38,294 nucleotides of DNA from Streptomyces humicola. Its GTDB lineage: Bacteria > Actinomycetota > Actinomycetes > Streptomycetales > Streptomycetaceae. Below the pieces are notes generated by a model. The model saw nothing but the letters and a program-made list of their open reading frames with translations. It made no database searches and was not told the origin of the DNA. Within the stretch, counting starts at the first letter, position 1. Every line of letters starts with the position of its first letter. This document shows positions 4,225 to 29,487 of this stretch, one piece after another. A program made the translations under genes and the position numbers. Location of the stretch: positions 1 to 38,294 of the forward strand of contig NZ_JANFNG010000047.1 of NCBI RefSeq assembly GCF_024436035.1, in the 5' to 3' direction.

Positions 4225-5583
4225 CTACGCCTGCGGATTTCTGCCCGTTCCGGCGGCGAACTCGAATTCGGCGCGCGGGTTCTCCAGCGATCCGAGGGCG
4301 ACGATCTCCCGTTTGAAGAGCGCGGCGAGCGTCCAGTCGGCGACGACGCGTGCCTTGCGGTTGATGGTCGGGACACGGCTGAGGTGGTAGGCGCGGTGCA
4401 TGAGCCAGGCAGAGTATCCCTTGAGTCTGCGCCCGTACAGGTGGGCGACGCCCTTGTGGAGGCCGAGCGAGGCGACCGACCCGGCGGAGGCGTGCCGGTA
4501 CTCCTTGATCTCACTGCCGCGCAGCGAGGCGACGACGTTGTCCGCGAGGACTTTGGCCTGGCGGACGGCGTGCTGGGCGTTGGGCGCGCACTCGGGGCCG
4601 GAGGCCGCGCCGGCGGTGATGTCGGGCACGGAGGCGGCGTCCCCTGCCGTCCATGCGTCGTCGGTGCCGTCGATGCGCAGGGTCGCGGTGGCGCGCAGGC
4701 GTCCGCGGTCGGTGCGCGGCAGGTCGGAGGCTTCCACGATCGGGTGAGGTTTGACCCCCGCGGTCCACACGAGCGTGCGAGTGGGGAAACGGGCGCCGTC
4801 GCTGAGCACGGCGACGCGGTTCTCGCACGATTCCAGCCGGGTCCCGAGTCGTACGTCGATGTTGCGGCCGCGAAGTTCGCGCACGGTGTAGCGGCCGAGT
4901 TCCTCGCCGACCTCGGGCAGGATGCGGTCGCTGGCCTCGACGAGGACCCAGCGCATGTCGTCCGGCGTGACGTTGTGGTAGTGGCGGACGGCGTAGCGCG
5001 CCATGTCCTCGAGTTCACCGAGTGCCTCGACCCCCGCGAAGCCGCCGCCGACGAAGACGAAGGTCAACGCGGCGTCACGGACGTCCACATCGCGGGTGGA
5101 GGAGGCGATGTCGAGCTGTTCGAGCACGTGGTTGCGCAGGCCGACCGCTTCTTCGACGGTCTTGAAGCCGATGCCCGCCTCGGCAAGACCTGGGACGGGG
5201 AGGGTTCGGGAGACGGATCCTGGGGCGAGGATCAGCACGTCGTAGGCGATGTCCAGCTCGCCGCGGCCCTCGTGCTCGGTGGCGAGTGTGGTGACGACGG
5301 CGGTCTTCTTGGCGTGATCGATGCGTCGCGCCTCGCCGACGAGGACGGTGCACTTGGGCAGCACGCGGCGCAGCGGCACGACGACGTGCGCCGGGGCGAT
5401 CGAGCCGGCCGCCGTCTCGGGGAGAAACGGCTGGTATGTCATATAGGGATCCGGCGAAATCACGACGATTTCCGCCTCGTCCCGGCTCAGCTTCCGTTGC
5501 AGGCGCAGGGCTGCGTACATGCCGACGTAACCACCGCCGACCACCAGAATCCGTGCGGGCTCCTTCACCCTCCCATGAGGCAC
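4225..5583 (-). CDS. ndh: Type II NADH dehydrogenase (NAD(P)/FAD-dependent oxidoreductase)
   Basis: The protein of about 452 residues begins with a dinucleotide-binding motif (ILVVGGGYVGMYAA) and has a second one (FVFVGGGFAGVEALGELEDMA). It also has the ATG-like TLVWTAGVKPHP and the FAD-contacting WTAGDAASVPD. This is the single-subunit, non-proton-pumping NADH:quinone oxidoreductase layout, attached to the inner face of the membrane. The reading frame is open upstream to a TTG at 5676. Homology to the family begins only at the glycine-rich strand, so GTG at 5583 or GTG at 5568 (next to GGGAGG) is the likely start. It is divergent from the TetR gene at 5749; in S. coelicolor the corresponding NADH dehydrogenase sits beside atrA and is a reported AtrA target. 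Confidence 0.92.
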   Translation of the reverse strand: MPHGRVKEPARILVVGGGYVGMYAALRLQRKLSRDEAEIVVISPDPYMTYQPFLPETAAGSIAPAHVVVPLRRVLPKCTVLVGEARRIDHAKKTAVVTTLATEHEGRGELDIAYDVLILAPGSVSRTLPVPGLAEAGIGFKTVEEAVGLRNHVLEQLDIASSTRDVDVRDAALTFVFVGGGFAGVEALGELEDMARYAVRHYHNVTPDDMRWVLVEASDRILPEVGEELGRYTVRELRGRNIDVRLGTRLESCENRVAVLSDGARFPTRTLVWTAGVKPHPIVEASDLPRTDRGRLRATATLRIDGTDDAWTAGDAASVPDITAGAASGPECAPNAQHAVRQAKVLADNVVASLRGSEIKEYRHASAGSVASLGLHKGVAHLYGRRLKGYSAWLMHRAYHLSRVPTINRKARVVADWTLAALFKREIVALGSLENPRAEFEFAAGTGRNPQA

Positions 5584-5748: not shown

Positions 5749-6561
5749 ATGCACATTCAAGAGCCGCAGTGGGCGATGCCGACAGGTTCGGCTTCAGCAG
5801 CGGGCGGGGACGACGGCGGTACGGGCGCGGGCGGGGACGACGGCGGTACGGGCGCGGGCGGCGTGGGCGCGGGGCACATGCGGCATTCGCCGCTCCGCGT
5901 CGACGCCCAGCGCAATCTGGAGCATGTGCTGCGGGCGGCGCGTGAGGTGTTCGGCGAACTGGGATACGGGGCGCCGATGGAGGACGTGGCGCGCCGCGCG
6001 CGGGTCGGGGTGGGCACCGTCTACCGGCGCTTTCCCAGCAAGGACGTTCTCGTGCGGCGGATCGCCGAGGAGGAGACGGCCCGGCTGACCGAGCAGGCGC
6101 GCACGGCCCTGGGTCAGGAGGACGAACCGTGGGCGGCGTTGTCGCGGTTTCTGCGGACCTCGGTGGCGTCGGGCGCGGGGCGGCTGCTGCCGCCGCAGGT
6201 GTTGCACGTCGTCAGTGAGCCGGAGTCATCGCGGCCTGGTGAGGACGGCGGGGAGCCGGAGCCACGCGTTCCGCAGCAGCGTGAGCCGCGCGCGGAGCTG
6301 AACGTACACGGGGACGATGCGGGCGATCCGGATGCCCCGGGCGAGGGCGCCGGGGTGTCGGCGCTGCTGTCGGTGGTCGGCCAGTTGGTGGAGCGGGCAC
6401 GTGCGGCCGGTGAGCTGCGGTCGGACGTGAGCGTCGCGGATGTGCTGCTGGTGATAGCCACCTCGGCGCCGTCGTTGCCGGATCCCGCGCAGCATGCGGC
6501 GGCTTCGGCGCGGCTGCTGGAGATCCTGCTCGAAGGGCTGCGCTCGCGCAGCAGGCCCTAG
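5749..6561 (+). CDS. atrA: TetR-family regulator, AtrA-like
   Basis: The 270-residue protein has a Gly/Asp-rich disordered N-terminus of about 45 residues. A TetR HTH at about 55-100 follows (MEDVARRARVGVGTVYRRFP, then SKDVLVRRIAEEE) and then a helical ligand domain interrupted by an acidic linker. In Streptomyces, AtrA is a TetR regulator that activates antibiotic pathway genes such as actII-ORF4 and responds to metabolic state. The assignment rests on the HTH, the N-terminus and the divergent NADH dehydrogenase. ATG at 5749 has GGGGGA eight bases upstream. The much longer open frame upstream is antisense to ndh and is not coding. A hairpin follows the stop. Confidence 0.82.
   Translation: MHIQEPQWAMPTGSASAAGGDDGGTGAGGDDGGTGAGGVGAGHMRHSPLRVDAQRNLEHVLRAAREVFGELGYGAPMEDVARRARVGVGTVYRRFPSKDVLVRRIAEEETARLTEQARTALGQEDEPWAALSRFLRTSVASGAGRLLPPQVLHVVSEPESSRPGEDGGEPEPRVPQQREPRAELNVHGDDAGDPDAPGEGAGVSALLSVVGQLVERARAAGELRSDVSVADVLLVIATSAPSLPDPAQHAAASARLLEILLEGLRSRSRP
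5800..5861 (+). repeat. 27-bp tandem repeat inside atrA-like gene
   Basis: Two perfect 27-bp units (5800-5826 and 5827-5853) plus an 8-bp partial third copy encode AGGDDGGTG twice in the disordered N-terminus. The length is a multiple of three, so copy-number change keeps the frame and would only lengthen or shorten the linker before the HTH. Confidence 0.8.
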
Positions 6562-6562
6562 T

Positions 6563-6592
6563 GCGCCCCGAACGGGTGACGTTCGGGGGCGC
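6563..6592 (+). terminator. Hairpin terminator after atrA-like gene
   Basis: GCGCCCCGAACG pairs with CGTTCGGGGGCGC (one bulged G) around a short loop, beginning two bases after the stop codon. There is no U-tract, as is common for actinobacterial terminators. Confidence 0.65.
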
Positions 6593-6708
6593 GGAGCGCG
6601 AAGTCCGCACGGACGAGTGGTTCCTGTTACTCGGCGTATCAGTGCGACCGGAAATGTGCGACTCTTTGGCGGTGGCTCGATGCATCACTGTCTTCGGGGG
6701 CTTCCGCG

Positions 6709-8604
6709 ATGGGCGTTGACGACGGCCGGAACGACTCGCGCAAACAGAGAATCCCCGGGCAGGCCACCGGGCCCGCCGCCGAGACCGAGTCCGACACCGT
6801 GCCCGAGACGGCGGCCGACGTTGCGGCGCAGCCTGCTGCCGCGCCGGGCCCGTCCGGGCACGAGGCCGCGCGTCAGTCTGCGGGCGAGAATGTGCCGCCG
6901 CAGCGCGAACACCCGGGGAACGCCGACACCGCGCAGCCGGATGCCGACCTGGTGGCCCGGGTCCGCGGCGGCGACGACAGCGCCTACGAGGAGCTGTACC
7001 GGCGGCACGCCGACGCCGTGCGCCGCTATGCGCGCACCTGCTGCCGTGACGCGCACACCGCCGAGGACCTGACGGGCGAGGTGTTCGCCCGTACGTTGCA
7101 CGCCGTACGCGGCGGCAGCGGGCCGGACTCCGCGGTGCGCGCCTATCTGCTCACCACCGTGCGGCGGGTCGCCGCATCCTGGGCGAACACCGCGAAGCGG
7201 GAGCAACTGGTAGAGGACTTTGCGGTGTTCGCGGTTTCGGCCACCGGCTCGACGGCCAACGAGGACACGCTCGACCTCGGCGCCGACGTCCGCGCGATGC
7301 ACCAGGCCGAGCAGTCCCTCGCCATCAAGGCCTTCCGCACGCTGCCCGAGCGGTGGCAGGCGGTGCTGTGGCACACCGCCGTCGAGGAGGAGTCCCCGAG
7401 CCAGATCGCGCCGCTGCTCGGCCTGACCGCCAATGCCACGGCGGTGCTGGCGCACCGGGCGCGCGAAGGATTGCGCCAGGCGTATCTGCAGGCGCACGTG
7501 AACGTGGCGCTCACGACGTCGAAGTCCGAATGCGCCCAGTACGCCGACCGGCTCGGTGCGCACGCCCGCGGCAGTCTGCGGTTGCGTGCCGACCGGGAGT
7601 TGCGCGGCCATCTGCAGGAGTGCTCCAAGTGCAGGGCGGCGGCGGTGGAGCTCGCCGACGTCAACGCGTGCCTGAAGGGGCTGCTTCCGGTGGCCACCGT
7701 CGGGTGGTTTGCCGCCGCGTACGCCGCAAAGGTTGCCGGAGTCGCTGCCGCCGGCGCCGCGGGTGCGGCAGGAGCCGGTGCGGCCGCCGCTGCCGCGTCA
7801 GGGTCCGGATCGGGCAGCGCCGTCGGCGGCGCGGCCGGAGCCGCGGCCTCCGAGGGCGCCAGTCTGCCCGCGAAGATCGGCATCGCGGCGGGAGTGGTGG
7901 TGGCCGCGGCCGGTGTCGCGCTCGCCGCCACGCTGCTCGGCAACCACTCACCCGCGCCGAAGCCGCAGGCCAAGCCGCCCGCGGCGCCACGCCCCATCGT
8001 CCAGGTGTCGAACCCGGCCCCCAGGCCGAGACCGACGCCCACCCCCACTGCGGCACCGACGGCGCCCGCCGCGGCGCCCACACACGCACCGCCGCCGCCG
8101 ACGCCGAGCGCCGCACCGACGCCGTCCCGCAAGCCCACCCCGGCTCCGACGCCCACCGCGCCCCCGCCGGCCACCGTCTATCGGGTCAACCAGCTGCAGT
8201 GGAGCGTCCTCAGCAACGGCAACGCGCCCACGGTGGACGAAACGCAGAGCAGTTGGATGTGGCAGCGCAACGGCATGACCATCGACGGCCGGTCCTACGC
8301 CGCCGGCGTCACCGTGGGCGCCCCCTCGTCCGTCCTCATCGACCTCAACCGCACCTGCACCTCGTACGACGCGATGGCCGGGGTCGATGACATGGCGATG
8401 GGACTGGGCACGGTCCGCTTCCTCGTCTACGGGGACGGGACGCTGCTGTACGAGTCGGGTGCCGTGCAGAGCGGCGACCCTGCCGTACCGGTGCACGCCG
8501 GCCTCACCGGGCACAGGACGCTGCGGCTCGTCGTCGAGCCGACCGACCCGCTGCAGCTCGCGAACGTCGCGGACTGGGCAGATTCGCGCATCACCTGCCA
8601 GTAG
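6709..8604 (+). CDS. Membrane-anchored ECF sigma factor with zinc-finger and NPCBM-like domain
   Basis: This is a 631-residue fusion. Residues 1-77 are disordered. Residues 78-160 match sigma region 2 (LVARVRGGDDSAYEELYRRH, AEDLTGEVFART). Residues 206-258 match sigma region 4 (LPERWQAVLWHTAVEEESPS, then APLLGLTANATAVLAHRAREG). H301-x3-C305-x2-C308 (HLQECSKC) is the signature of a zf-HC2/ZAS anti-sigma domain. An Ala/Gly-rich linker leads to one TM segment at about 389-411, a Pro/Thr/Ala linker (413-488) and a C-terminal domain of about 140 residues resembling NPCBM carbohydrate-binding modules, predicted to be extracellular. Sigma, anti-sigma-like finger, anchor and sensor are thus in one chain. 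How the sigma part would be released (proteolysis or allostery) is unknown. It is convergent with the next gene and overlaps it by 14 bp. Confidence 0.9.
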   Translation: MGVDDGRNDSRKQRIPGQATGPAAETESDTVPETAADVAAQPAAAPGPSGHEAARQSAGENVPPQREHPGNADTAQPDADLVARVRGGDDSAYEELYRRHADAVRRYARTCCRDAHTAEDLTGEVFARTLHAVRGGSGPDSAVRAYLLTTVRRVAASWANTAKREQLVEDFAVFAVSATGSTANEDTLDLGADVRAMHQAEQSLAIKAFRTLPERWQAVLWHTAVEEESPSQIAPLLGLTANATAVLAHRAREGLRQAYLQAHVNVALTTSKSECAQYADRLGAHARGSLRLRADRELRGHLQECSKCRAAAVELADVNACLKGLLPVATVGWFAAAYAAKVAGVAAAGAAGAAGAGAAAAAASGSGSGSAVGGAAGAAASEGASLPAKIGIAAGVVVAAAGVALAATLLGNHSPAPKPQAKPPAAPRPIVQVSNPAPRPRPTPTPTAAPTAPAAAPTHAPPPPTPSAAPTPSRKPTPAPTPTAPPPATVYRVNQLQWSVLSNGNAPTVDETQSSWMWQRNGMTIDGRSYAAGVTVGAPSSVLIDLNRTCTSYDAMAGVDDMAMGLGTVRFLVYGDGTLLYESGAVQSGDPAVPVHAGLTGHRTLRLVVEPTDPLQLANVADWADSRITCQ

Positions 8605-10771
8605 ATCCGGGCAACGGGCGTGCCGGAGGCGTGAACACCTCGCGTGCGCCGGGGCGGTGCCCCAGCCGCAGTGGCGCCTGCGGCGCCTCGGCACCGCTCC
8701 AGCACGAGCCGCGCCGTGCCAGCAGCCTGCGCAGCCACAGCTCTGTCGAGACCAACTCCGCGAGCCCGTCGAGCGGAAGCGCCTCTCCCCGCGCAGCCGC
8801 GCTCAGCGCGCCCCGCACCACCCGGGCCTCCACCAGGCCCGCATCCGCCAGCAGTGGTGCCGCGAACAGGTCCTGCAGGTCGTCGTGGGAGGAGCGCAAC
8901 CCGGCCCGTACCGCGGAGGCGGACGACGCGTGCGTCGTCGCGCCCCATCCGGGCGGCAAATCGCGGATGCCGGTCGCGGCGAGCACGGAGCGCAGCACCG
9001 CCGCGCGCGCCCCCGGGCGCACGCGGAGCGCTTCCGGGAGCCCCTGGCAGGCGCGTACGACCTGGTTGTCGAGGAACGGCGCGTGCAGCCGCTGGCTGCG
9101 CACCTCCACCGCCTGTTCGTAGATCCGGTGATCGGCGGCGGCGCGCGCGAGCGCCGCCCGTGCCCGGCGTTCGCCAGGGCGTCCGACCGACCCCGGACGC
9201 GCCGCCGCGTCCTGCAGGCGAACCGATACTTCAGCCAGTGCCTCCCCGGTCAGCCAGCGCGCCGCGGGGCCCGGCCGGCACCACGTCAGCGCCGCGAGCG
9301 ATGCCTGCAGGCCGCTCTCCCCCGCGTCGTCGAAGCGCCGTTCGAGCAGCCGTCCCGCCACGTCCTCCACACCCTGTTGATACGGCGTGCGCGCCAGCCG
9401 CCGTGCCGCCCGGTAGACCGTCAGCGGTACCAGGACAGAGCGCGCCGAGACCCCTTCGGCCTGCGCCAACGCCGTGGCGGGGCGCAGCAGATGGCGTCGC
9501 CGCCGGTCGAGGAGGAGATCGGCGAGACGGGCCGGATGGGCGTCGAGGACGTGCCGCGCACCCAACCCGACGAGGTGGTCGGCGCCGCCGGCCGCCAGCC
9601 TGCGCCGGTGGCGCTCGGCCACCACGAGGGACGGTCCCGGCTCGTCGGTGAGCGGCGTGCTGTCCATCAGGCCTGCATAGGGCAGCGCTTCGGCGCCGCC
9701 GGGGACGACGACGTGGTGCAGACGCGGGTTGTCCGCCATGCGCCGAGCCCGCTCGAGTTCGGCCTCTCGCCCCGGTTCCGTGCCGGACGCCAGGTCGTTG
9801 AAGGTGACGGCCCGCAATCGCTGTCCCGCCTCCGAGCCGTGGCCGAGCAGCGTCCCCGGCATGCCGGGCAGCCCGGCGGCGAGCAGCGCGAGCGTGGCCG
9901 ACGCGCTGCCTCCGGACAGGTCGGCCCCGACCCCGGGGGTGGGCGCGTCGCCCGGGTCGGGCACGTAGCGGGGTTGCGCGAGGCGCGTCCGTACGGCGGC
10001 GACGAGCGCCTCGCGTACGCCTGCGACGGCCTGTTCGGCGTCGGCGGTGGAAGGGGAGGGGGAGGCGCCGACGGCAAGCGATGCGGTCGGCTCGTAGCCG
10101 GTGATCTCGGGGACGCCTTCACGCAGGATCAGCGCATGGCCGGGCGGCAGCCGTCGTACGCCCTGGTAGGGGGTACCGGTGCCGAGTGCCTCCGGTGAGT
10201 CGGGGCAGGCGAGGCCGGCCGCGAGGTGGGTGACGTCGAGAGCCGCCTCGATGAGGTCGGCGAGCGGGAGGGCGGCGGTGGCATACGCGGTGCCGTCGGC
10301 CCAGGGGGCGTGGAAGACGGGCCGGGCGCCCGCCAAGTCGCCCAGTACGGTGATGCGCCGGCCGATCTGCAGGACGGCGGTGTAGCTGCCGGGCCACGTG
10401 GTCAGGTGGCGCAACGCCCCGCCGCGCGCGGCGAAGAGACCGACGCGCAGCGCGTCGTCGGTGGCGTGGCAGCGGCCGAGGACGGCGAGGCGGGCCGTGC
10501 CCGGACCCGCGCCGCGGCTCTCGCGTCGTGCGCGATGATCGATCGGCGTGCTGCCCGTACTGCCCATACTGCCGTTGCGATACGGGTAGTTGGAGCCCCG
10601 GCGCACCGGGTCGGCCTCGATCACCCGCACCTCGTCGGGCCGCCAGTCGCCGACCGCCCAGAGCGGATCCGGGTCGCCCCACAGCAGTTGGCCGCCCACA
10701 GGCACAACCGTTGGGCCCTGTACGGCGGATGCTCCCCCGACGGCGCTGCTCCACCCCACCAACCACCGCAT
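8591..10771 (-). CDS. Asparagine-synthetase / lasso-cyclase-like protein with degenerate active site
   Basis: The 726-residue protein resembles asparagine synthetase B and lasso-peptide macrolactam synthetases. It has an N-terminal Ntn-hydrolase-like half (GSYTAVLQIGRRITVLGDLAG, RRLPPGHALIL) lacking the catalytic Cys2, and a C-terminal synthetase-like half ending in LHAPFLDNQVV-type sequence. The ATP-pyrophosphatase loop SGGxDS reads SGGSASA here, without the Asp. The usual GxGGDE motif reads GLGARHV. This suggests a non-adenylating pseudoenzyme. ATG at 10771 (MRWLVGW) has GGTGGAGG five bases upstream, so the 44-residue extension in frame above it is not used. No lasso precursor, leader peptidase or RRE protein is seen nearby. 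The function is unknown. Confidence 0.85.
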   Translation of the reverse strand: MRWLVGWSSAVGGASAVQGPTVVPVGGQLLWGDPDPLWAVGDWRPDEVRVIEADPVRRGSNYPYRNGSMGSTGSTPIDHRARRESRGAGPGTARLAVLGRCHATDDALRVGLFAARGGALRHLTTWPGSYTAVLQIGRRITVLGDLAGARPVFHAPWADGTAYATAALPLADLIEAALDVTHLAAGLACPDSPEALGTGTPYQGVRRLPPGHALILREGVPEITGYEPTASLAVGASPSPSTADAEQAVAGVREALVAAVRTRLAQPRYVPDPGDAPTPGVGADLSGGSASATLALLAAGLPGMPGTLLGHGSEAGQRLRAVTFNDLASGTEPGREAELERARRMADNPRLHHVVVPGGAEALPYAGLMDSTPLTDEPGPSLVVAERHRRRLAAGGADHLVGLGARHVLDAHPARLADLLLDRRRRHLLRPATALAQAEGVSARSVLVPLTVYRAARRLARTPYQQGVEDVAGRLLERRFDDAGESGLQASLAALTWCRPGPAARWLTGEALAEVSVRLQDAAARPGSVGRPGERRARAALARAAADHRIYEQAVEVRSQRLHAPFLDNQVVRACQGLPEALRVRPGARAAVLRSVLAATGIRDLPPGWGATTHASSASAVRAGLRSSHDDLQDLFAAPLLADAGLVEARVVRGALSAAARGEALPLDGLAELVSTELWLRRLLARRGSCWSGAEAPQAPLRLGHRPGAREVFTPPARPLPGSTGR

Positions 10772-11667
10772 CGCAGCCTCCACCGGCTGTGGACAACTGG
10801 CCTGGCGGCACAAACAGCTGCCGCTCCGTGTGAGGAACATGCTGCCACGGAGCGGGGCGCGTGGGGTCTGACGACCCGGCGCGCGATGGCTGCCGGGTCG
10901 CAACCCTGGTTGTTGGGTGAGCCGGTATGAAGTTATTTGCCCCCTATAGCCGTTATATTCGGTTGCTGAGCGCGGTTGGCTGCCCGGCCGGGCCTCCCCC
11001 TCCTCAGGTCCGGAACAGGCAGCCTCAAACCGACGACTTCACGCCAATCTGGCGCGTCGGCCACCGGCCCAATACCGCGGTCCGAGAGGCGTCGGCACGC
11101 CTCCCGGACCGGTTCCGCCGCCCGCGGGGAATGAGGCGGCGGCGTCCCCTGGCCCGCCGCCGAGTGTCCGAAGCCGCAGTTCCGGCAGCAGGCCGACCCA
11201 CGCGTCCATGCAACCTCCCGTACCCGATCGCGCACAGAGCGCACGGACGGGCGCACAGCCACACGCACCAGGAGCACGTACGCCAGTGCGCATCATTCAG
11301 GAATCAAACGGGCACCAAACGCGCGTCGAACCCGCCGTGACCGGGCATCGATCAGGAGTCGGCAGCGTGCCCGGGACGCGCCGACAGGTCACTTACAGGA
11401 CACCGGGCAGGGGCAGGATCTCGCCATCCAAGACAGGCCTCTTAACGGTCGGGATCCGGCGAACTACGCTGGGTGTAACCCGAGGAGCGGACGTCCCGAC
11501 GGCTCGGGGCCCGGCGCATGCCCAGCGGATGCCGCAGCGACATCAGCCGCTGGCGCGGCGGGCCACGACCGGCATCGGTGGCGGGCACCGGCAGACCGTC
11601 GCAACCCGGCGGCACGGCTGGTCCCGGCCCGCATGCACGGGGGCGGCAAGCGCGACGAGGAGTGCGC
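10772..11667. other. 896-bp intergenic region without a supported gene
   Basis: The region between the divergent cyclase-like gene and the NsdA-like gene has only short overlapping ORFs with shadow-like composition. An AT-rich patch at about 10927-10965 (TTATTTGCCCC, CTATAGCCGTTATATTC) could hold promoters, for example TATAAC or TATAGG read on the minus strand for the cyclase-like gene. TACGCT near 11464 could be a -10 for the gene at 11668. No RNA gene or small precursor peptide is convincingly visible. Confidence 0.5.
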
Positions 11668-15378: not shown

Positions 15379-16809
15379 GTGACCTCGTACCCGCATTCGC
15401 CCGGCCCCACGGGCCCCGCAGGCCCCAACCCTGCCGGGCCGAACTGGTACGGCACTCCCGGCGCCGCCGGCGCCCCCGCCCCGGTCCACGGTCTCGGCGG
15501 AACCCACCCCGTACCGCACTACGCGCACCAGCCGCAGTTCTCGCTCCCCCACCGCTGGCGCTACAAACCACGCCGCGCCGCCTTCTGGGAGAGCAAGGCG
15601 CTGCGCGCCGGCGCGCTGATCACCGTGCTCGCCCTCTGCGGCCTGGCCATCCTCGCGATCGTCCGCCAGCAGACCGGCACCGAGGGCTTCCTCGTCGGCC
15701 TCGCCCTCGCCGTCCTGCCCGTACCGCTGCTCGTCTGCACGTTCCTGTGGATCGACCGCGTCGAGCCGCAGCCGTGGCGGAACCTCGTCTTCGCCTTCGC
15801 CTGGGGCGCATGCGCCGCCACCCTGATTGCGATCTTCGCCAACAGCTTCGCGACGCACATCCTGGCGACGACGTTCACCGCGACCCCGTCCCAGGCCAAC
15901 TCCTGGGGTGCTACCTTCGCCGCCCCGCCCGTCGAGGAGACGTGCAAGGGAACCGCAGTTCTGCTGCTCTTCCTCTTCCGCAGACGTGACTTCACGGGCA
16001 TCGTCGACGGTGTCGTGGTCGCGGGCATCACGGCGACCGGCTTCGCGTTCACCGAGAACATCCTGTACCTCGGCTCGGCCTTCGGCGAGGACCAGCAGCT
16101 CGGGTCGCACGGGCTGCCGTCCACCACCATCGCAACGTTCTTCATCCGCGTGATCATGTCCCCCTTCGCGCACCCGCTGTTCACCTCGATGACCGGCATC
16201 GGCTTCGGCATATCCGCGATGAGCCGGCGCGGCCACGTACGCCGCTGGCTGGCGCCGATCGGCGGCTGGTGCCTGGCGATGACGATGCACGGCATATGGA
16301 ACGGGTCGTCGTCGCTCGGCGCGCTCGGCTTCATCGCCGTCTACGTCGCCTTCATGTGCCCGGTCTTCGGTCTGCTCGTTTGGCTCGCCATCCGGTCACG
16401 TTCCAACGAACTCAAGACCATCCGCGCCCAACTGCCCGTCTACGCGATGGCCGGCTGGCTCAACCCCCTCGAACCGCTCGCCCTCTCCTCCATGCGCGCC
16501 CGCAAACTCGCCCGCGACCTCGCCCGCCGCGCCCGCGGTGCCGCCGACGCCCGCACGGTGCGCGAGTACCAGGCCTTCGCAACCTCGCTCGCCTTCCTGC
16601 GCGCCCGCGCCGCGCGCGGCGCCGCCGGCTCCGACTTCACCATCCGTGAGCAGGAGCTCCTCCACCACCTCTGGCAGCGCAAGGCCCTTGCGCAACCCGT
16701 CCTCGTCCAGGCCGCCTACGCGATCAGACCGCCCATGCCCCCGCAGTGGCCGGGCCCGTACGCCCCTCCGCCGCAGCAGCAGCCGCCCTACGGCCCGTAC
16801 AGGCCTTAG
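15379..16809 (+). CDS. PrsW-family intramembrane metalloprotease
   Basis: The 476-residue protein has a Pro/Gly-rich cytoplasmic N-terminus (about 60 residues), about eight TM helices and a long soluble, Pro/Gln-rich C-terminus. PrsW motifs are present: PPVEETCKG (about 183-191), GFAFTENILYL (about 221) and HPLFTSMTGIGFG (about 264), with MHGIWNGSS in a later helix. These Glu and His residues form the metal site. In Bacillus, PrsW cuts the anti-sigma factor RsiW at site 1. Substrates in streptomycetes are unknown. The membrane-anchored sigma protein at 6709 is a speculative candidate only. The gene probably has its own leaderless promoter. Confidence 0.93.
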   Translation: MTSYPHSPGPTGPAGPNPAGPNWYGTPGAAGAPAPVHGLGGTHPVPHYAHQPQFSLPHRWRYKPRRAAFWESKALRAGALITVLALCGLAILAIVRQQTGTEGFLVGLALAVLPVPLLVCTFLWIDRVEPQPWRNLVFAFAWGACAATLIAIFANSFATHILATTFTATPSQANSWGATFAAPPVEETCKGTAVLLLFLFRRRDFTGIVDGVVVAGITATGFAFTENILYLGSAFGEDQQLGSHGLPSTTIATFFIRVIMSPFAHPLFTSMTGIGFGISAMSRRGHVRRWLAPIGGWCLAMTMHGIWNGSSSLGALGFIAVYVAFMCPVFGLLVWLAIRSRSNELKTIRAQLPVYAMAGWLNPLEPLALSSMRARKLARDLARRARGAADARTVREYQAFATSLAFLRARAARGAAGSDFTIREQELLHHLWQRKALAQPVLVQAAYAIRPPMPPQWPGPYAPPPQQQPPYGPYRP

Positions 16810-26712: not shown

Positions 26713-29487
26713 ATGACCCGGCTACTGGGTCGATCGCACCAGGGAAAGCCCTCCTGTACCTCGACCGGGACCGCGACCGGGACCCCGCCGGGCGGGAGGG
26801 TTCCCAGCCTTGCCCGGATCCCGTCCGACGAACAGCAGCGACGCAGCCGCTGGCACTCGGCGGCGAACCTGCGCAGCCTGGCCGGCCAGGTCTTCGTCCT
26901 GCAGGTGATCATCGTCCTGCTGCTCGCTGCCGCCGCAGTGGGCGAGGTGATCCTGCAGACCCGGCACGACACCACGACGGAGGCGCGCAACCGGTCGCTC
27001 GCCGTCGCCCAGACCTTCGCCAACTCCCCGGGGATCGTCGCGGCACTGCACTCGCCCAATCCGACCGCCATCCTGCAGCCGGATGCCGAGGCGGCGCGCA
27101 AGCTCACCGGCGTCGACTTCATCGTCGTCACCAACACACAGGGCATCCGCTACACCCACCCCATCCGCAACCGGATCGGGAAGAAGTTCGTCGGCAACAT
27201 CGGGCCGCCGCTCGCCGGGCACCCCGTCACCGAGAATATCAAGGGAACGATCGGCCCGCTGGTGCAGGCCAACGTTCCCGTCTTCGACCCGCACCACAAG
27301 GTCGTCGGCATAGTCTCCGCCGGGGTCACGATCAACAAGATCGGCGCCACGGTCAACCGCCAGATGCCCGTCCTGTTCACCGGCGCGGCCGTGGCGGTGC
27401 TCCTCGCCGCCGGCGGGACCGCGCTTGTCAGCAGACGCCTGCGACGCCAGACCCATGGCCTCGAACCGGCCGAGATGACACGCATGTACGAGCACCACGA
27501 CGCGGTGCTGCACGCCGTCAAGGAGGGCGTGATCATCGTCGGCGGGGACGGCCGGTTGCTGCTCGCCAACGACGAGGCCGCCCGGCTGCTCGGTCTGCCC
27601 CCCGACGCGGAGGGGCGCCTGGTCACCGAGCTCGGCCTGGAGGAGCGGGCCGCCACCCTGCTCGCCTCGGGCCGCGTCGTCACCGACGAGGTGCTGCCTT
27701 CCGGTGACCGGCTGCTCGCGGTGAACAACCGGCCGACCGACCGCAACGGCGGACCGCCCGGCAGCGTGGCGACGCTGCGCGACACCACCGAGCTGCGGGT
27801 CCTCTCGAGCAAGGCCGACGCGGCCCGCAGGCGCCTGAAGCTGCTGTATGACGCGAGCGTGTGCATCGGCACCACCCTCGACGTCACCCGCACCGCGGAG
27901 GAGCTGGCGCAGGTCGCCGTCCCCGGGTTTGCCGACTTCGTCACCGTCGACCTCGCGGAGCCGGTGCTGCGCGGCGAGGAGCCGGCGCGCCGGGACGGCA
28001 CCGAGATGCGCCGGGTCGCCGTCGGCGGCATCCGCGACGACTTCCCCTTCTATCCCGTGGGCCGGCGGTTCGCCTTCGCCCCCGCCACGCCGCAGGCGGC
28101 AGGGCTCGGCAGCGGGCGGGCGGTCCTCGCACCGCGCCTCGACGACGTCCCCGGGTGGCGGACCCAGGACCCCGAACGCACCAAGCGGATCATCGACTAC
28201 GGCATCCACTCGCTGATCACCGTGCCGCTGCGGGCGCGCGGCGACATCCTCGGCATGGTCAACTTCTGGCGGTCCCAGAAACCCGAGCCCTTCGAGAGCG
28301 ACGATCTCTCGCTCGCGGAGGAGCTGGTGGCACGGGCTGCGGTGTGCATCGACAACGCCCGCCGCTACACCCGCGAGCACACCATGGCCGTCACCCTGCA
28401 GCGCAGCCTGCTCCCCCGCGGGCTGCCCGAGCAGAGCGCCCTCGACGTCGCCTACCGCTATCTGCCCGCGCAGGCGGGGGTCGGCGGCGACTGGTTCGAC
28501 GTCATCCCGCTGCCGGGGGCGCGCGTCGCCCTGGTGGTGGGCGACGTCGTCGGCCACGGACTGCATGCCGCCGCGACGATGGGCCGGCTGCGCACCGCGG
28601 TCCACAACTTCTCCGCGCTCGACCTGCCGCCCGACGAGCTGCTCGGCCACCTCGACGAGCTGATCGGCCGCATCGACACCGACGAGGCGGCGGCCGGAGG
28701 TGAGCTGTCCGTCGCGGGCGCCACCTGCCTGTACGCGATCTACGACCCGGTCGCCCGGCAGTGTGTGCTCTCCCGGGCCGGGCACCCGCCGCCCGCGCTC
28801 GTGCACCCCGACGGCCGGGTGGAGTTCCCCGAGCTGCCCGCCGGGCTGCCGCTGGGCCTGGGCAGCCTGCCGTTCGAGACGGCGGAGTGGCACGTGCCGG
28901 AGGGCAGCCAGCTCGTCCTCTACACCGACGGGCTGATCGAGGACCGCGACCGGGACATCGACGTCGGCTTCGGGCTGCTGCGCGAGTCGCTGTCGCGCGC
29001 CGGCCGCAGTCCGGAGGAGACCTGCGCGGCGGTGCTCGACGCGATGCTCCCGGACCGGCAGAGCCGCCAGAGCGACGACATCGCGCTGCTCGTGGCCCGT
29101 ACCCGCGGGCTGCAGCCCAACCAGGTGGCCGAATGGGACGTGCCGTCGGATCCGGCAGCGGTGGCGGGGGTGCGTGCCGACGTCACCCGCAGGCTGTCGG
29201 AGTGGGGCCTGGACGAGGTGGCGTTCACCACGGAGCTGATCCTCAGCGAGCTGATCACCAACGCCATCCGCTACACCAACGGCCCGATCCAGGTCCGGCT
29301 GCTGCGCGACCGCACCTTGATCTGCGAGGTCTCGGACTCCAGCAACACCTCCCCGCATCTGCGGTATGCGGCCACCACGGACGAGGGCGGGCGCGGCCTG
29401 TTCCTCGTCGCGCAGCTCGCCGACCGGTGGGGGACGCGTTACACCAGCGCGGGCAAGGTCATCTGGACCGAGCAGTTCTTGCCGTAG
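26713..29487 (+). CDS. Membrane sensor PP2C phosphatase (Cache-PAS-GAF-SpoIIE-HATPase)
   Basis: The 924-residue protein has TM1 at about 56-80, an extracytoplasmic Cache-like sensor (DFIVVTNTQGIRYTHP, KKFVGNIGPPLAG) and TM2 at about 217-240. PAS (about 255-350) and GAF (about 362-535) domains follow. The SpoIIE PP2C domain has VGGDWFDV near 590, GDVVGHG and YTDGLIEDRD near 737, and a C-terminal HATPase has the N-box ELILSELITNAIRY near 841. The sensor is CitA/DcuS-like, so a small ligand such as a carboxylate is possible. It probably controls a sigma or anti-sigma partner switch. The ATG at 26713 lacks a clear SD, so the true start may be downstream. Confidence 0.92.
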   Translation: MTRLLGRSHQGKPSCTSTGTATGTPPGGRVPSLARIPSDEQQRRSRWHSAANLRSLAGQVFVLQVIIVLLLAAAAVGEVILQTRHDTTTEARNRSLAVAQTFANSPGIVAALHSPNPTAILQPDAEAARKLTGVDFIVVTNTQGIRYTHPIRNRIGKKFVGNIGPPLAGHPVTENIKGTIGPLVQANVPVFDPHHKVVGIVSAGVTINKIGATVNRQMPVLFTGAAVAVLLAAGGTALVSRRLRRQTHGLEPAEMTRMYEHHDAVLHAVKEGVIIVGGDGRLLLANDEAARLLGLPPDAEGRLVTELGLEERAATLLASGRVVTDEVLPSGDRLLAVNNRPTDRNGGPPGSVATLRDTTELRVLSSKADAARRRLKLLYDASVCIGTTLDVTRTAEELAQVAVPGFADFVTVDLAEPVLRGEEPARRDGTEMRRVAVGGIRDDFPFYPVGRRFAFAPATPQAAGLGSGRAVLAPRLDDVPGWRTQDPERTKRIIDYGIHSLITVPLRARGDILGMVNFWRSQKPEPFESDDLSLAEELVARAAVCIDNARRYTREHTMAVTLQRSLLPRGLPEQSALDVAYRYLPAQAGVGGDWFDVIPLPGARVALVVGDVVGHGLHAAATMGRLRTAVHNFSALDLPPDELLGHLDELIGRIDTDEAAAGGELSVAGATCLYAIYDPVARQCVLSRAGHPPPALVHPDGRVEFPELPAGLPLGLGSLPFETAEWHVPEGSQLVLYTDGLIEDRDRDIDVGFGLLRESLSRAGRSPEETCAAVLDAMLPDRQSRQSDDIALLVARTRGLQPNQVAEWDVPSDPAAVAGVRADVTRRLSEWGLDEVAFTTELILSELITNAIRYTNGPIQVRLLRDRTLICEVSDSSNTSPHLRYAATTDEGGRGLFLVAQLADRWGTRYTSAGKVIWTEQFLP

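What the first reader, a model, noticed from the sequence alone, without database searches (positions are those of the whole stretch)
6709..8604. Sigma factor, zinc-finger, membrane anchor and carbohydrate-binding-like domain in one chain
Sigma regions 2 and 4, a ZAS-like H-x3-C-x2-C, one TM and an NPCBM-like outer domain are all visible in a single 631-residue frame. Membrane-tethered ECF proteins with long C-terminal extensions are known in actinobacteria. How a sigma factor that carries its own anchor is released, and what glycan (perhaps wall or glycopeptide) it senses, is open. Upstream lies an AtrA-like gene and the convergent partner is a pseudo-cyclase. A PrsW-type protease 9 kb away is a conceivable releaser, but this is speculation.
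Basis: partly seen in the sequence, partly recalled or inferred. Interest (0 to 1): 0.65.

Follow-up and report, generated by a model that had tools for sequence, protein, structure and literature searches.

The report
Membrane-tethered sigma factor with sugar-binding domain

Summary
The architecture is real: 6709-8604 (+) encodes 631 residues with ECF sigma regions 2 and 4, a C-x25-H-x3-C-x2-C motif, one predicted transmembrane helix, a Pro-rich stalk and an NPCBM/CBM51 domain. It is not new: this layout defines actinobacterial ECF52, whose member SCO4117 also lies beside atrA; gene order and an Scr4115 match agree. Of 101 Streptomycetaceae genomes, 91 have a hit at E <= 1e-60. Glycan-triggered proteolytic release is already proposed in print. 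PrsW as releaser lacks specific support: the region is conserved as a whole, PrsW is over 500 kb away in six genomes, and three genomes lack it. A published sigma-only strain is not hyperactive, which argues against simple removal of an inhibitor. Added here: zinc ligands invariant in 32 of 32; NPCBM cysteines in 31 of 31; W333 in 46 of 46, but an equivalent Trp in only 19 of 40 wider paralogs; paralogs with ricin-type, DUF642 or Big_9 outer domains; a conserved upstream element, only partly AtrA-like.

The parts
6709..8604 (+). ECF52-type membrane-tethered ECF sigma factor, 631 aa
   Evidence: single full-length copy in the genome
6709..6930 (+). residues 1-74, poorly conserved N-terminus, predicted disordered
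   Evidence: pLDDT 35-40 for residues 1-70; mean column identity 0.21
6994..7200 (+). sigma region 2 (residues 96-164)
   Evidence: Pfam Sigma70_r2 E 4.1e-11; VIA-align Z 13.0, rmsd 1.8, 89 aligned, to 5or5 (E. coli sigmaE region 2; helical, so Z near 13 alone is not decisive)
7327..7467 (+). sigma region 4 (residues 207-253)
   Evidence: Pfam Sigma70_r4_2 E 3.9e-4, below cut-off; 3hug chain K (numbers 107-177 of the RslA/sigL entry) Z 8.4 over residues 196-266
7531..7635 (+). ZAS-type zinc finger C275-x25-H301-x3-C305-x2-C308 (residues 275-309)
   Evidence: zf-HC2 E 0.0038, below cut-off; four residues invariant 32 of 32
7660..7755 (+). conserved P-x-A-x-x-G-W-F segment and helices (residues 318-349), proposed anti-sigma helix 4
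   Evidence: W333 46 of 46 in A2; a Trp at the matching distance in 19 of 40 wider paralogs; helices 318-331 and 335-349, the latter largely under pLDDT 50
7876..7941 (+). predicted transmembrane helix (residues 390-411), invariant K389 just before it
   Evidence: hydropathy in 32 sequences; K389 invariant
7945..8172 (+). Pro-rich stalk (residues 413-488)
   Evidence: sequence; variable length in relatives
8185..8595 (+). NPCBM / CBM51 domain (residues 493-629)
   Evidence: Pfam E 5.4e-30; pLDDT block means 84-98; Foldseek to CBM51 structures; C550 and, just after the Pfam match, C630 invariant 31 of 31
6609..6624 (-). conserved upstream element (GGAACCACTCGTCCGT on the minus strand), about 85 bp before the start codon; partly AtrA-like
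   Evidence: published AtrA box in PMC4457907 passages
5878..6561 (+). AtrA-like TetR regulator (position of SCO4118)
   Evidence: TetR_N E 3.3e-13; order kept in 35 of 44 loci
4225..5583 (-). NADH dehydrogenase-like (position of SCO4119)
   Evidence: Pyr_redox_2 E 1.4e-36
8591..10840 (-). convergent Asn_synthase-family protein; overlaps the sigma gene's 3' end by 14 bp
   Evidence: PF00733 E 1.1e-9
11076..11203 (-). Scr4115 sRNA match (context marker)
   Evidence: Rfam RF02829, 62.8 bits, gathering 58
15379..16809 (+). PrsW family protease (context only; no link to the sigma factor shown)
   Evidence: PF13367 E 1.1e-56; only match in the genome

Best explanation
The gene is the ECF52 sigma factor of this Streptomycetaceae genome, the likely ortholog of SCO4117 (by architecture and gene order; the SCO4117 sequence itself was not compared). 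It works as a one-component receptor. The zinc-finger segment plus the W333 segment form a built-in anti-sigma domain that holds sigma 2 and sigma 4 near the membrane (inferred). One helix crosses the membrane, and a Pro-rich stalk carries the NPCBM/CBM51 domain into the cell wall (predicted). Binding of a wall or environmental glycan, or its loss, triggers cleavage by unidentified proteases, so that the sigma domain can join RNA polymerase (inferred; already proposed in print). The output is development and secondary metabolism (shown only for SCO4117 in S. coelicolor).
For: Same modules as the published ECF52 definition. NADH dehydrogenase - AtrA-like - ECF52 order in 35 of 44 loci; 6 loci are paralogs without synteny and 3 contigs begin inside or just before the gene. 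Scr4115 match in the window. Candidate zinc ligands 32 of 32, NPCBM cysteines 31 of 31, K389 before the TM, which fit a cytoplasmic zinc site and an oxidising outside for the NPCBM. TM hydropathy. The NPCBM model matches CBM51 structures, among them 7jrl (with GlcNAc) and 2vmg (with methyl-galactose). Paralogs carry other outer domains: of 30 proteins scanned (29 paralogs and L125), ricin-type 14, DUF642 3, Big_9 2, NPCBM 1, none recognised 10. In class I anti-sigma domains helix 4 binds sigma 2 and helix 1 binds sigma 4 (PMC7406223, passages).
Against: In S. coelicolor a strain expressing only the sigma domain is not hyperactive: actinorhodin and sporulation are delayed against wild type, CDA is lower, and the gene's own transcript rises only 1.3-fold; its sporulation is still faster than in the knock-out. 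The extension may therefore be needed for activity and not only inhibit. No cleavage product, protease or ligand has been shown. The sigma/anti-sigma packing was not measured (no coordinates or PAE were returned), and model confidence is under 50 at 335-339 and 343-350. The Trp equivalent to W333 is missing in 21 of 40 wider paralogs. One of 20 ortholog stretches has no recognisable NPCBM (L125). Ten of 30 scanned proteins have no recognised outer domain.
Confidence: 0.6

Rival explanations
1. Regulated proteolysis in which the nearby PrsW protease makes the first cut.
For: PrsW is the only PF13367 match of the genome, and its gene begins 6.8 kb after the sigma gene ends; in 54 of 61 genomes with both best hits on one contig the two are within 20 kb.
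Against: The neighbourhood is conserved as a whole, so nearness is not specific. In six of six testable genomes of genus g7 the distance is 579 kb or more, and 3 of 101 genomes (G015, G027, G097) have a strong ECF52-type hit but no PrsW match; G015 is in two contigs. An M50 protease on contig C30 and three further split M50 hits are equally available.
Confidence: 0.1
2. No cleavage: glycan binding changes the clamp through the single TM helix, and the sigma factor works while still tethered; the extension also has a positive role.
For: A sigma-only strain does not show a constitutive phenotype; no processing was reported in the passages read.
Against: A long flexible Pro-rich stalk and a single TM are poor conformational transmitters (inference); the fused sigma/anti-sigma IutY is released by proteolysis (PMC8999054, passages).
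Confidence: 0.2
3. The zinc finger is the sensor: a redox switch, with the NPCBM acting only as a wall anchor.
For: Four invariant candidate ligands; soluble zinc-binding anti-sigma domains are often linked to redox sensing (PMC7406223, passages).
Against: The same passages say the motif may be structural in membrane-bound ones; one degenerate relative lost the finger but kept the tryptophan segment (L030:11876-12604).
Confidence: 0.1
4. Two TM helices, with the NPCBM in the cytoplasm.
For: An Ala/Gly-rich hydrophobic stretch (about 326-360) precedes the main TM; ECF52 proteins are said to have a variable number of TM helices, and the review says one to two for the ECF48/52/53 groups.
Against: That stretch has lower hydropathy (1.66 against 2.38) and an invariant K341; K389 precedes the stronger TM; the NPCBM carries two invariant cysteines. 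The passages describe one putative TM domain for SCO4117 and a periplasmic C-terminal part.
Confidence: 0.05

Closest known systems
SCO4117 of Streptomyces coelicolor (ECF52; PMC5826349)
   Same: ECF sigma, zinc finger, TM, Pro-rich region, carbohydrate-binding module; downstream of atrA. The window's Scr4115 match fits this locus; that the family is named after SCO4115 is my inference from its name
   Different: No difference in kind found, but the sequences were not compared directly because SCO4117 was not among the records fetched
ECF53 and ECF48 groups with C-terminal TM extensions (PMC8999054, passages)
   Same: Zinc-finger and TM extension fused to an ECF sigma factor
   Different: Not compared by sequence; PMC10766802 (passages) mentions predicted glycosyl hydrolase and carbohydrate-binding domains in some ECF52 and ECF53 proteins
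IutY of Pseudomonas putida (ECF243; PMC8999054, passages)
   Same: Sigma and membrane anti-sigma factor fused in one chain, released by proteolysis
   Different: Siderophore cell-surface signalling; no zinc finger or NPCBM is mentioned in the passage read
CBM51 modules, e.g. C. perfringens GH95 CBM51 (2vmg) and ZmpB CBM51-2 (7jrl)
   Same: Fold and sequence similarity of the outer domain
   Different: They belong to secreted glycosidases or proteases; sugar-contact residues were not compared

Membership tests
ECF sigma factors | sigma regions 2 and 4 | tested here: met
   sigma70-ECF 60.3 bits against 42.9; region 4 alone is below Pfam's cut-off in the window
ECF52 | zinc-finger domain after region 4 | tested here: met
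   zf-HC2 below cut-off in the window, but C275/H301/C305/C308 invariant 32 of 32; metal binding itself untested
ECF52 | transmembrane helix | tested here: met
   hydropathy only; no dedicated topology program or experiment
ECF52 | Pro-rich C-terminal extension | tested here: met
   residues 413-488
ECF52 | carbohydrate-binding domain at the C-terminus | tested here: met
   NPCBM E 5.4e-30; CBM51 fold; binding itself untested
ECF52 | score with the published ECF52 group model | not testable with these tools
   the ECF classification models are not among the libraries offered
ECF52 | restricted to Actinobacteria | tested here: inconclusive
   whole-genome search only within the family Streptomycetaceae; the 44 genome-contig loci bear Streptomyces, Actinacidiphila, Streptantibioticus or Actinomycetes titles
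SCO4117 ortholog | position beside atrA and the NADH dehydrogenase gene | tested here: met
   against the description
SCO4117 ortholog | direct sequence relation to SCO4117 | not tested
   the SCO4117 record was not fetched
CBM51 | binds galactose- or GlcNAc-type sugars | not tested
   fold and sequence matched only

The most novel reading that the evidence does not exclude
ECF52-type proteins form a modular family of glycan receptors in Streptomycetaceae: one sigma/zinc-finger core with exchangeable outer lectins (NPCBM, ricin-type, CBM6, DUF642). The NPCBM version is fixed at the atrA locus and senses a GlcNAc- or galactose-containing wall fragment, so that wall turnover feeds into the same developmental decision as AtrA's control of GlcNAc uptake, perhaps with AtrA acting on its promoter.
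Probability: 0.15. Interest if true: 0.5.

Novelty: already known. Interest (0 to 1): 0.25.

Why it matters
The window adds another ECF52 protein and shows that layout and locus are stable in Streptomycetaceae. The open questions (which glycan, which protease, whether the extension inhibits or also helps) are real, and the alignment names residues to test: C275/H301/C305/C308, W333, C550/C630 and the stalk. The different outer domains of paralogs offer natural chimeras for finding the signal.

Tried and rejected
PrsW as a specific partner: not supported. Four same-contig genomes were left out: G004, G018 and G044 (best hits only 43-48% identical, taken as paralogs; PrsW there is 2.8 to 3.4 Mb away) and G073 (hit split by a frame break).

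W333 as a universal latch: holds only partly, 46 of 46 in A2 (3 of 48 frames were skipped when A2 was chosen), but 19 of 40 in the wider paralogs, counted as a Trp 16 to 32 residues after the finger.

AtrA control: weakened on checking. Among 35 orthologous upstream regions, 13 match GGAMGRGTGGTTCC exactly and 18 with at most one mismatch, against 0 of 35 for the reversed control, so an element is conserved. But the part kept most widely, including several loci that miss the full pattern (for example L032, L038, L046, L047), is GGACGAGTGG, while the AtrA-like GGTTCC end varies. It matches only the left half of the published box GGAACCACCGGTTCC well. Genome-wide, the one-mismatch pattern has 22 matches against 49 for the reversed control, with two exact; in the window with 3 mismatches one match is what chance gives. 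The 12 aligned regions were chosen from the closer relatives. I therefore took AtrA control out of the best explanation and lowered the novel case from 0.2 to 0.15.

Ligand residues of the NPCBM: not resolved; no paper giving CBM51 contact residues was read (listings only). VIA-align covers mainly model residues 3-194, so the anti-sigma part was hardly tested. A sigma-70 consensus scan found no promoter in 6400-8800.

Multi-genome search with the full protein gave no usable answer three times; the 276-residue core worked. Rows dropped: 13 of 44 loci left out of A1 (4 cut by contig ends, 6 paralogs, 1 with an N run, 2 holding only the C-terminal part); 11 of 40 paralog loci not given to Pfam. 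Nine of the 14 ricin-type proteins show no Pfam sigma region at E <= 0.01 and L093 only a weak one; they are relatives by BLAST to the core.

Full report
Observation. The ORF at 6709-8604 (+) translates to 631 residues without a stop. Pfam finds NPCBM at 493-629 (E 5.4e-30), Sigma70_r2 at 96-164 (4.1e-11), and, below their cut-offs, Sigma70_r4_2 at 207-253 and zf-HC2 at 275-309. NCBIfam's sigma70-ECF model passes its cut-off. Full-length AlphaFold with 32 sequences (mean pLDDT 63.6, pTM 0.34) gives confident NPCBM and region 4 and low confidence for the N-terminus, linkers and part of the stalk. A second model of residues 72-350 with 46 sequences has mean pLDDT 83.3 and pTM 0.68. Foldseek places the outer domain with CBM51 modules (7jrl with GlcNAc, 2vmg with methyl-galactose) and the sigma part with AlgU, SigE and BldN entries.

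Relatives. One scan of genome contigs gave 44 loci. In 35 of 44 the AtrA-like gene and the NADH dehydrogenase-like gene lie upstream, together with the SpoIIE-type phosphatase gene; MarR and MFS genes are matched in 33. Six loci are paralogs elsewhere, and 3 contigs start inside or just before the gene. In 101 Streptomycetaceae genomes (own included) all have some match at E <= 0.001, and 91 have a best hit at E <= 1e-60. Of 20 ortholog stretches taken from genomes, 14 have the NPCBM in the same frame, 3 in another frame, 2 end with the contig, and 1 (L125) has none recognised.

Conserved features. In 32 aligned sequences C275, H301, C305, C308, K341 and K389 are invariant; C550 and C630 are invariant in the 31 that reach the NPCBM. 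A disulphide between the last two is an inference. W333 is invariant in 46 of 46 sequences of A2, including one relative that lost the finger, but a Trp at the matching distance is present in only 19 of 40 wider paralogs. Class I anti-sigma domains bind sigma 4 through helix 1 and sigma 2 through helix 4 (PMC7406223, passages); I propose that the W333 segment is helix 4. This was not tested by contacts.

Topology. The best 19-residue hydropathy window averages 2.38 for residues 384-415 and 1.66 for 313-383 (32 sequences). With K389 just before the helix this gives one TM and the NPCBM outside. It is a prediction.

Known counterpart. SCO4117 (PMC5826349; abstract, passages and sections 16 and 18 read) has the same modules and lies downstream of atrA. 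Its knock-out delays differentiation and actinorhodin and lowers CDA. Release of the sigma domain by an uncharacterised protease, with the carbohydrate module as possible trigger, is already proposed there, citing Pinto and Mascher 2016 (not read). The review PMC8999054 (passages) repeats it. PMC11256431 (outline and passages) lists an S. venezuelae sigma factor with 'r2, r4, NPCBM'. An Scr4115 sRNA match at 11076-11203 fits the locus. The SCO4117 sequence itself was not compared.

Evidence against the simple model. A sigma-only strain still shows delayed actinorhodin and sporulation (though faster than the knock-out), lower CDA, and only a 1.3-fold rise of the gene's transcript. If the extension were only an inhibitor, one would expect more activity. 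The extension may also be needed for stability, location or activation.

PrsW. It is the only PF13367 match in this genome. Of 61 genomes with both best hits on one contig, 54 are within 20 kb (6.6 to 18.2 kb), 1 is at 52 kb, and 6, all of genus g7, are at 579 kb or more; four further same-contig genomes were left out as told below. Three of 101 genomes (G015, G027, G097) have a strong ECF52-type hit but no PrsW match. Conserved regional synteny explains the nearness.

Sensor exchange. Of 30 proteins scanned (29 of 40 paralog loci, plus L125), the outer domain is ricin-type in 14, DUF642 in 3, Big_9 in 2, NPCBM in 1, and not recognised in 10. That DUF642 binds carbohydrate is recalled, not tested. 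L030 carries three neighbouring frames related to the core, the first ricin-like (below cut-off), the second with CBM6 (above cut-off) and the third without a recognised outer domain; L033 has two, the first ricin-like (below cut-off). The second and third L030 frames and the second L033 frame have no Pfam sigma region at E <= 0.01 and rest on BLAST similarity. This supports, but does not prove, a glycan-facing outer part. Variety of such domains in ECF52/53 is already mentioned in PMC10766802 (passages).

Upstream region. The intergenic region holds GGAACCACTCGTCCGT on the minus strand at 6609-6624. The plus-strand form GGAMGRGTGGTTCC is found with at most one mismatch in 18 of 35 orthologous upstream regions and in none of 35 reversed controls. 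It resembles the left half of the AtrA box GGAACCACCGGTTCC (PMC4457907, passages), but the core kept most widely is GGACGAGTGG and the AtrA-like end varies; genome-wide the pattern is not enriched. An unknown regulator is as likely as AtrA.

Verdict. A correct reading of an already known kind of protein. Interest 0.25; the open points are the ligand, the protease and the positive role of the extension.

Noticed in passing
L030:10040-14837; L033:9845-12834: Three (L030) and two (L033) neighbouring frames related to the sigma/finger core; outer parts are ricin-like (below cut-off), CBM6, or not recognised. L030:11813-13198 lacks the zinc motif but keeps the tryptophan segment.
   Followed up: partly
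L116, L118, L128 (and an N run in L036): The NPCBM lies in a different frame from the sigma/TM part. A stop between these parts is reported for S. clavuligerus in PMC5826349. Sequencing error or real frame breaks were not told apart; the frame overlaps of L116 and L118 hold no homopolymer of 6 or more.
   Followed up: partly
window 6609-6624 (-): Conserved element upstream of the sigma gene, partly AtrA-like; core GGACGAGTGG on the plus strand.
   Followed up: partly
window start; L010:1-3500: The window begins at a contig end, and several orthologous contigs also begin about 7 kb upstream of the gene. In L010, which reaches further, rRNA genes lie there, which probably explains the breaks.
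   Followed up: partly
window 26713-29487 (+): Second SpoIIE-type phosphatase, with sCache, GAF and PAS domains and a kinase-like ATPase domain.
   Followed up: no
L091, L092, L095, L096: Related sigma factors with the zinc motif whose frames end soon after it; a possible untethered branch.
   Followed up: no
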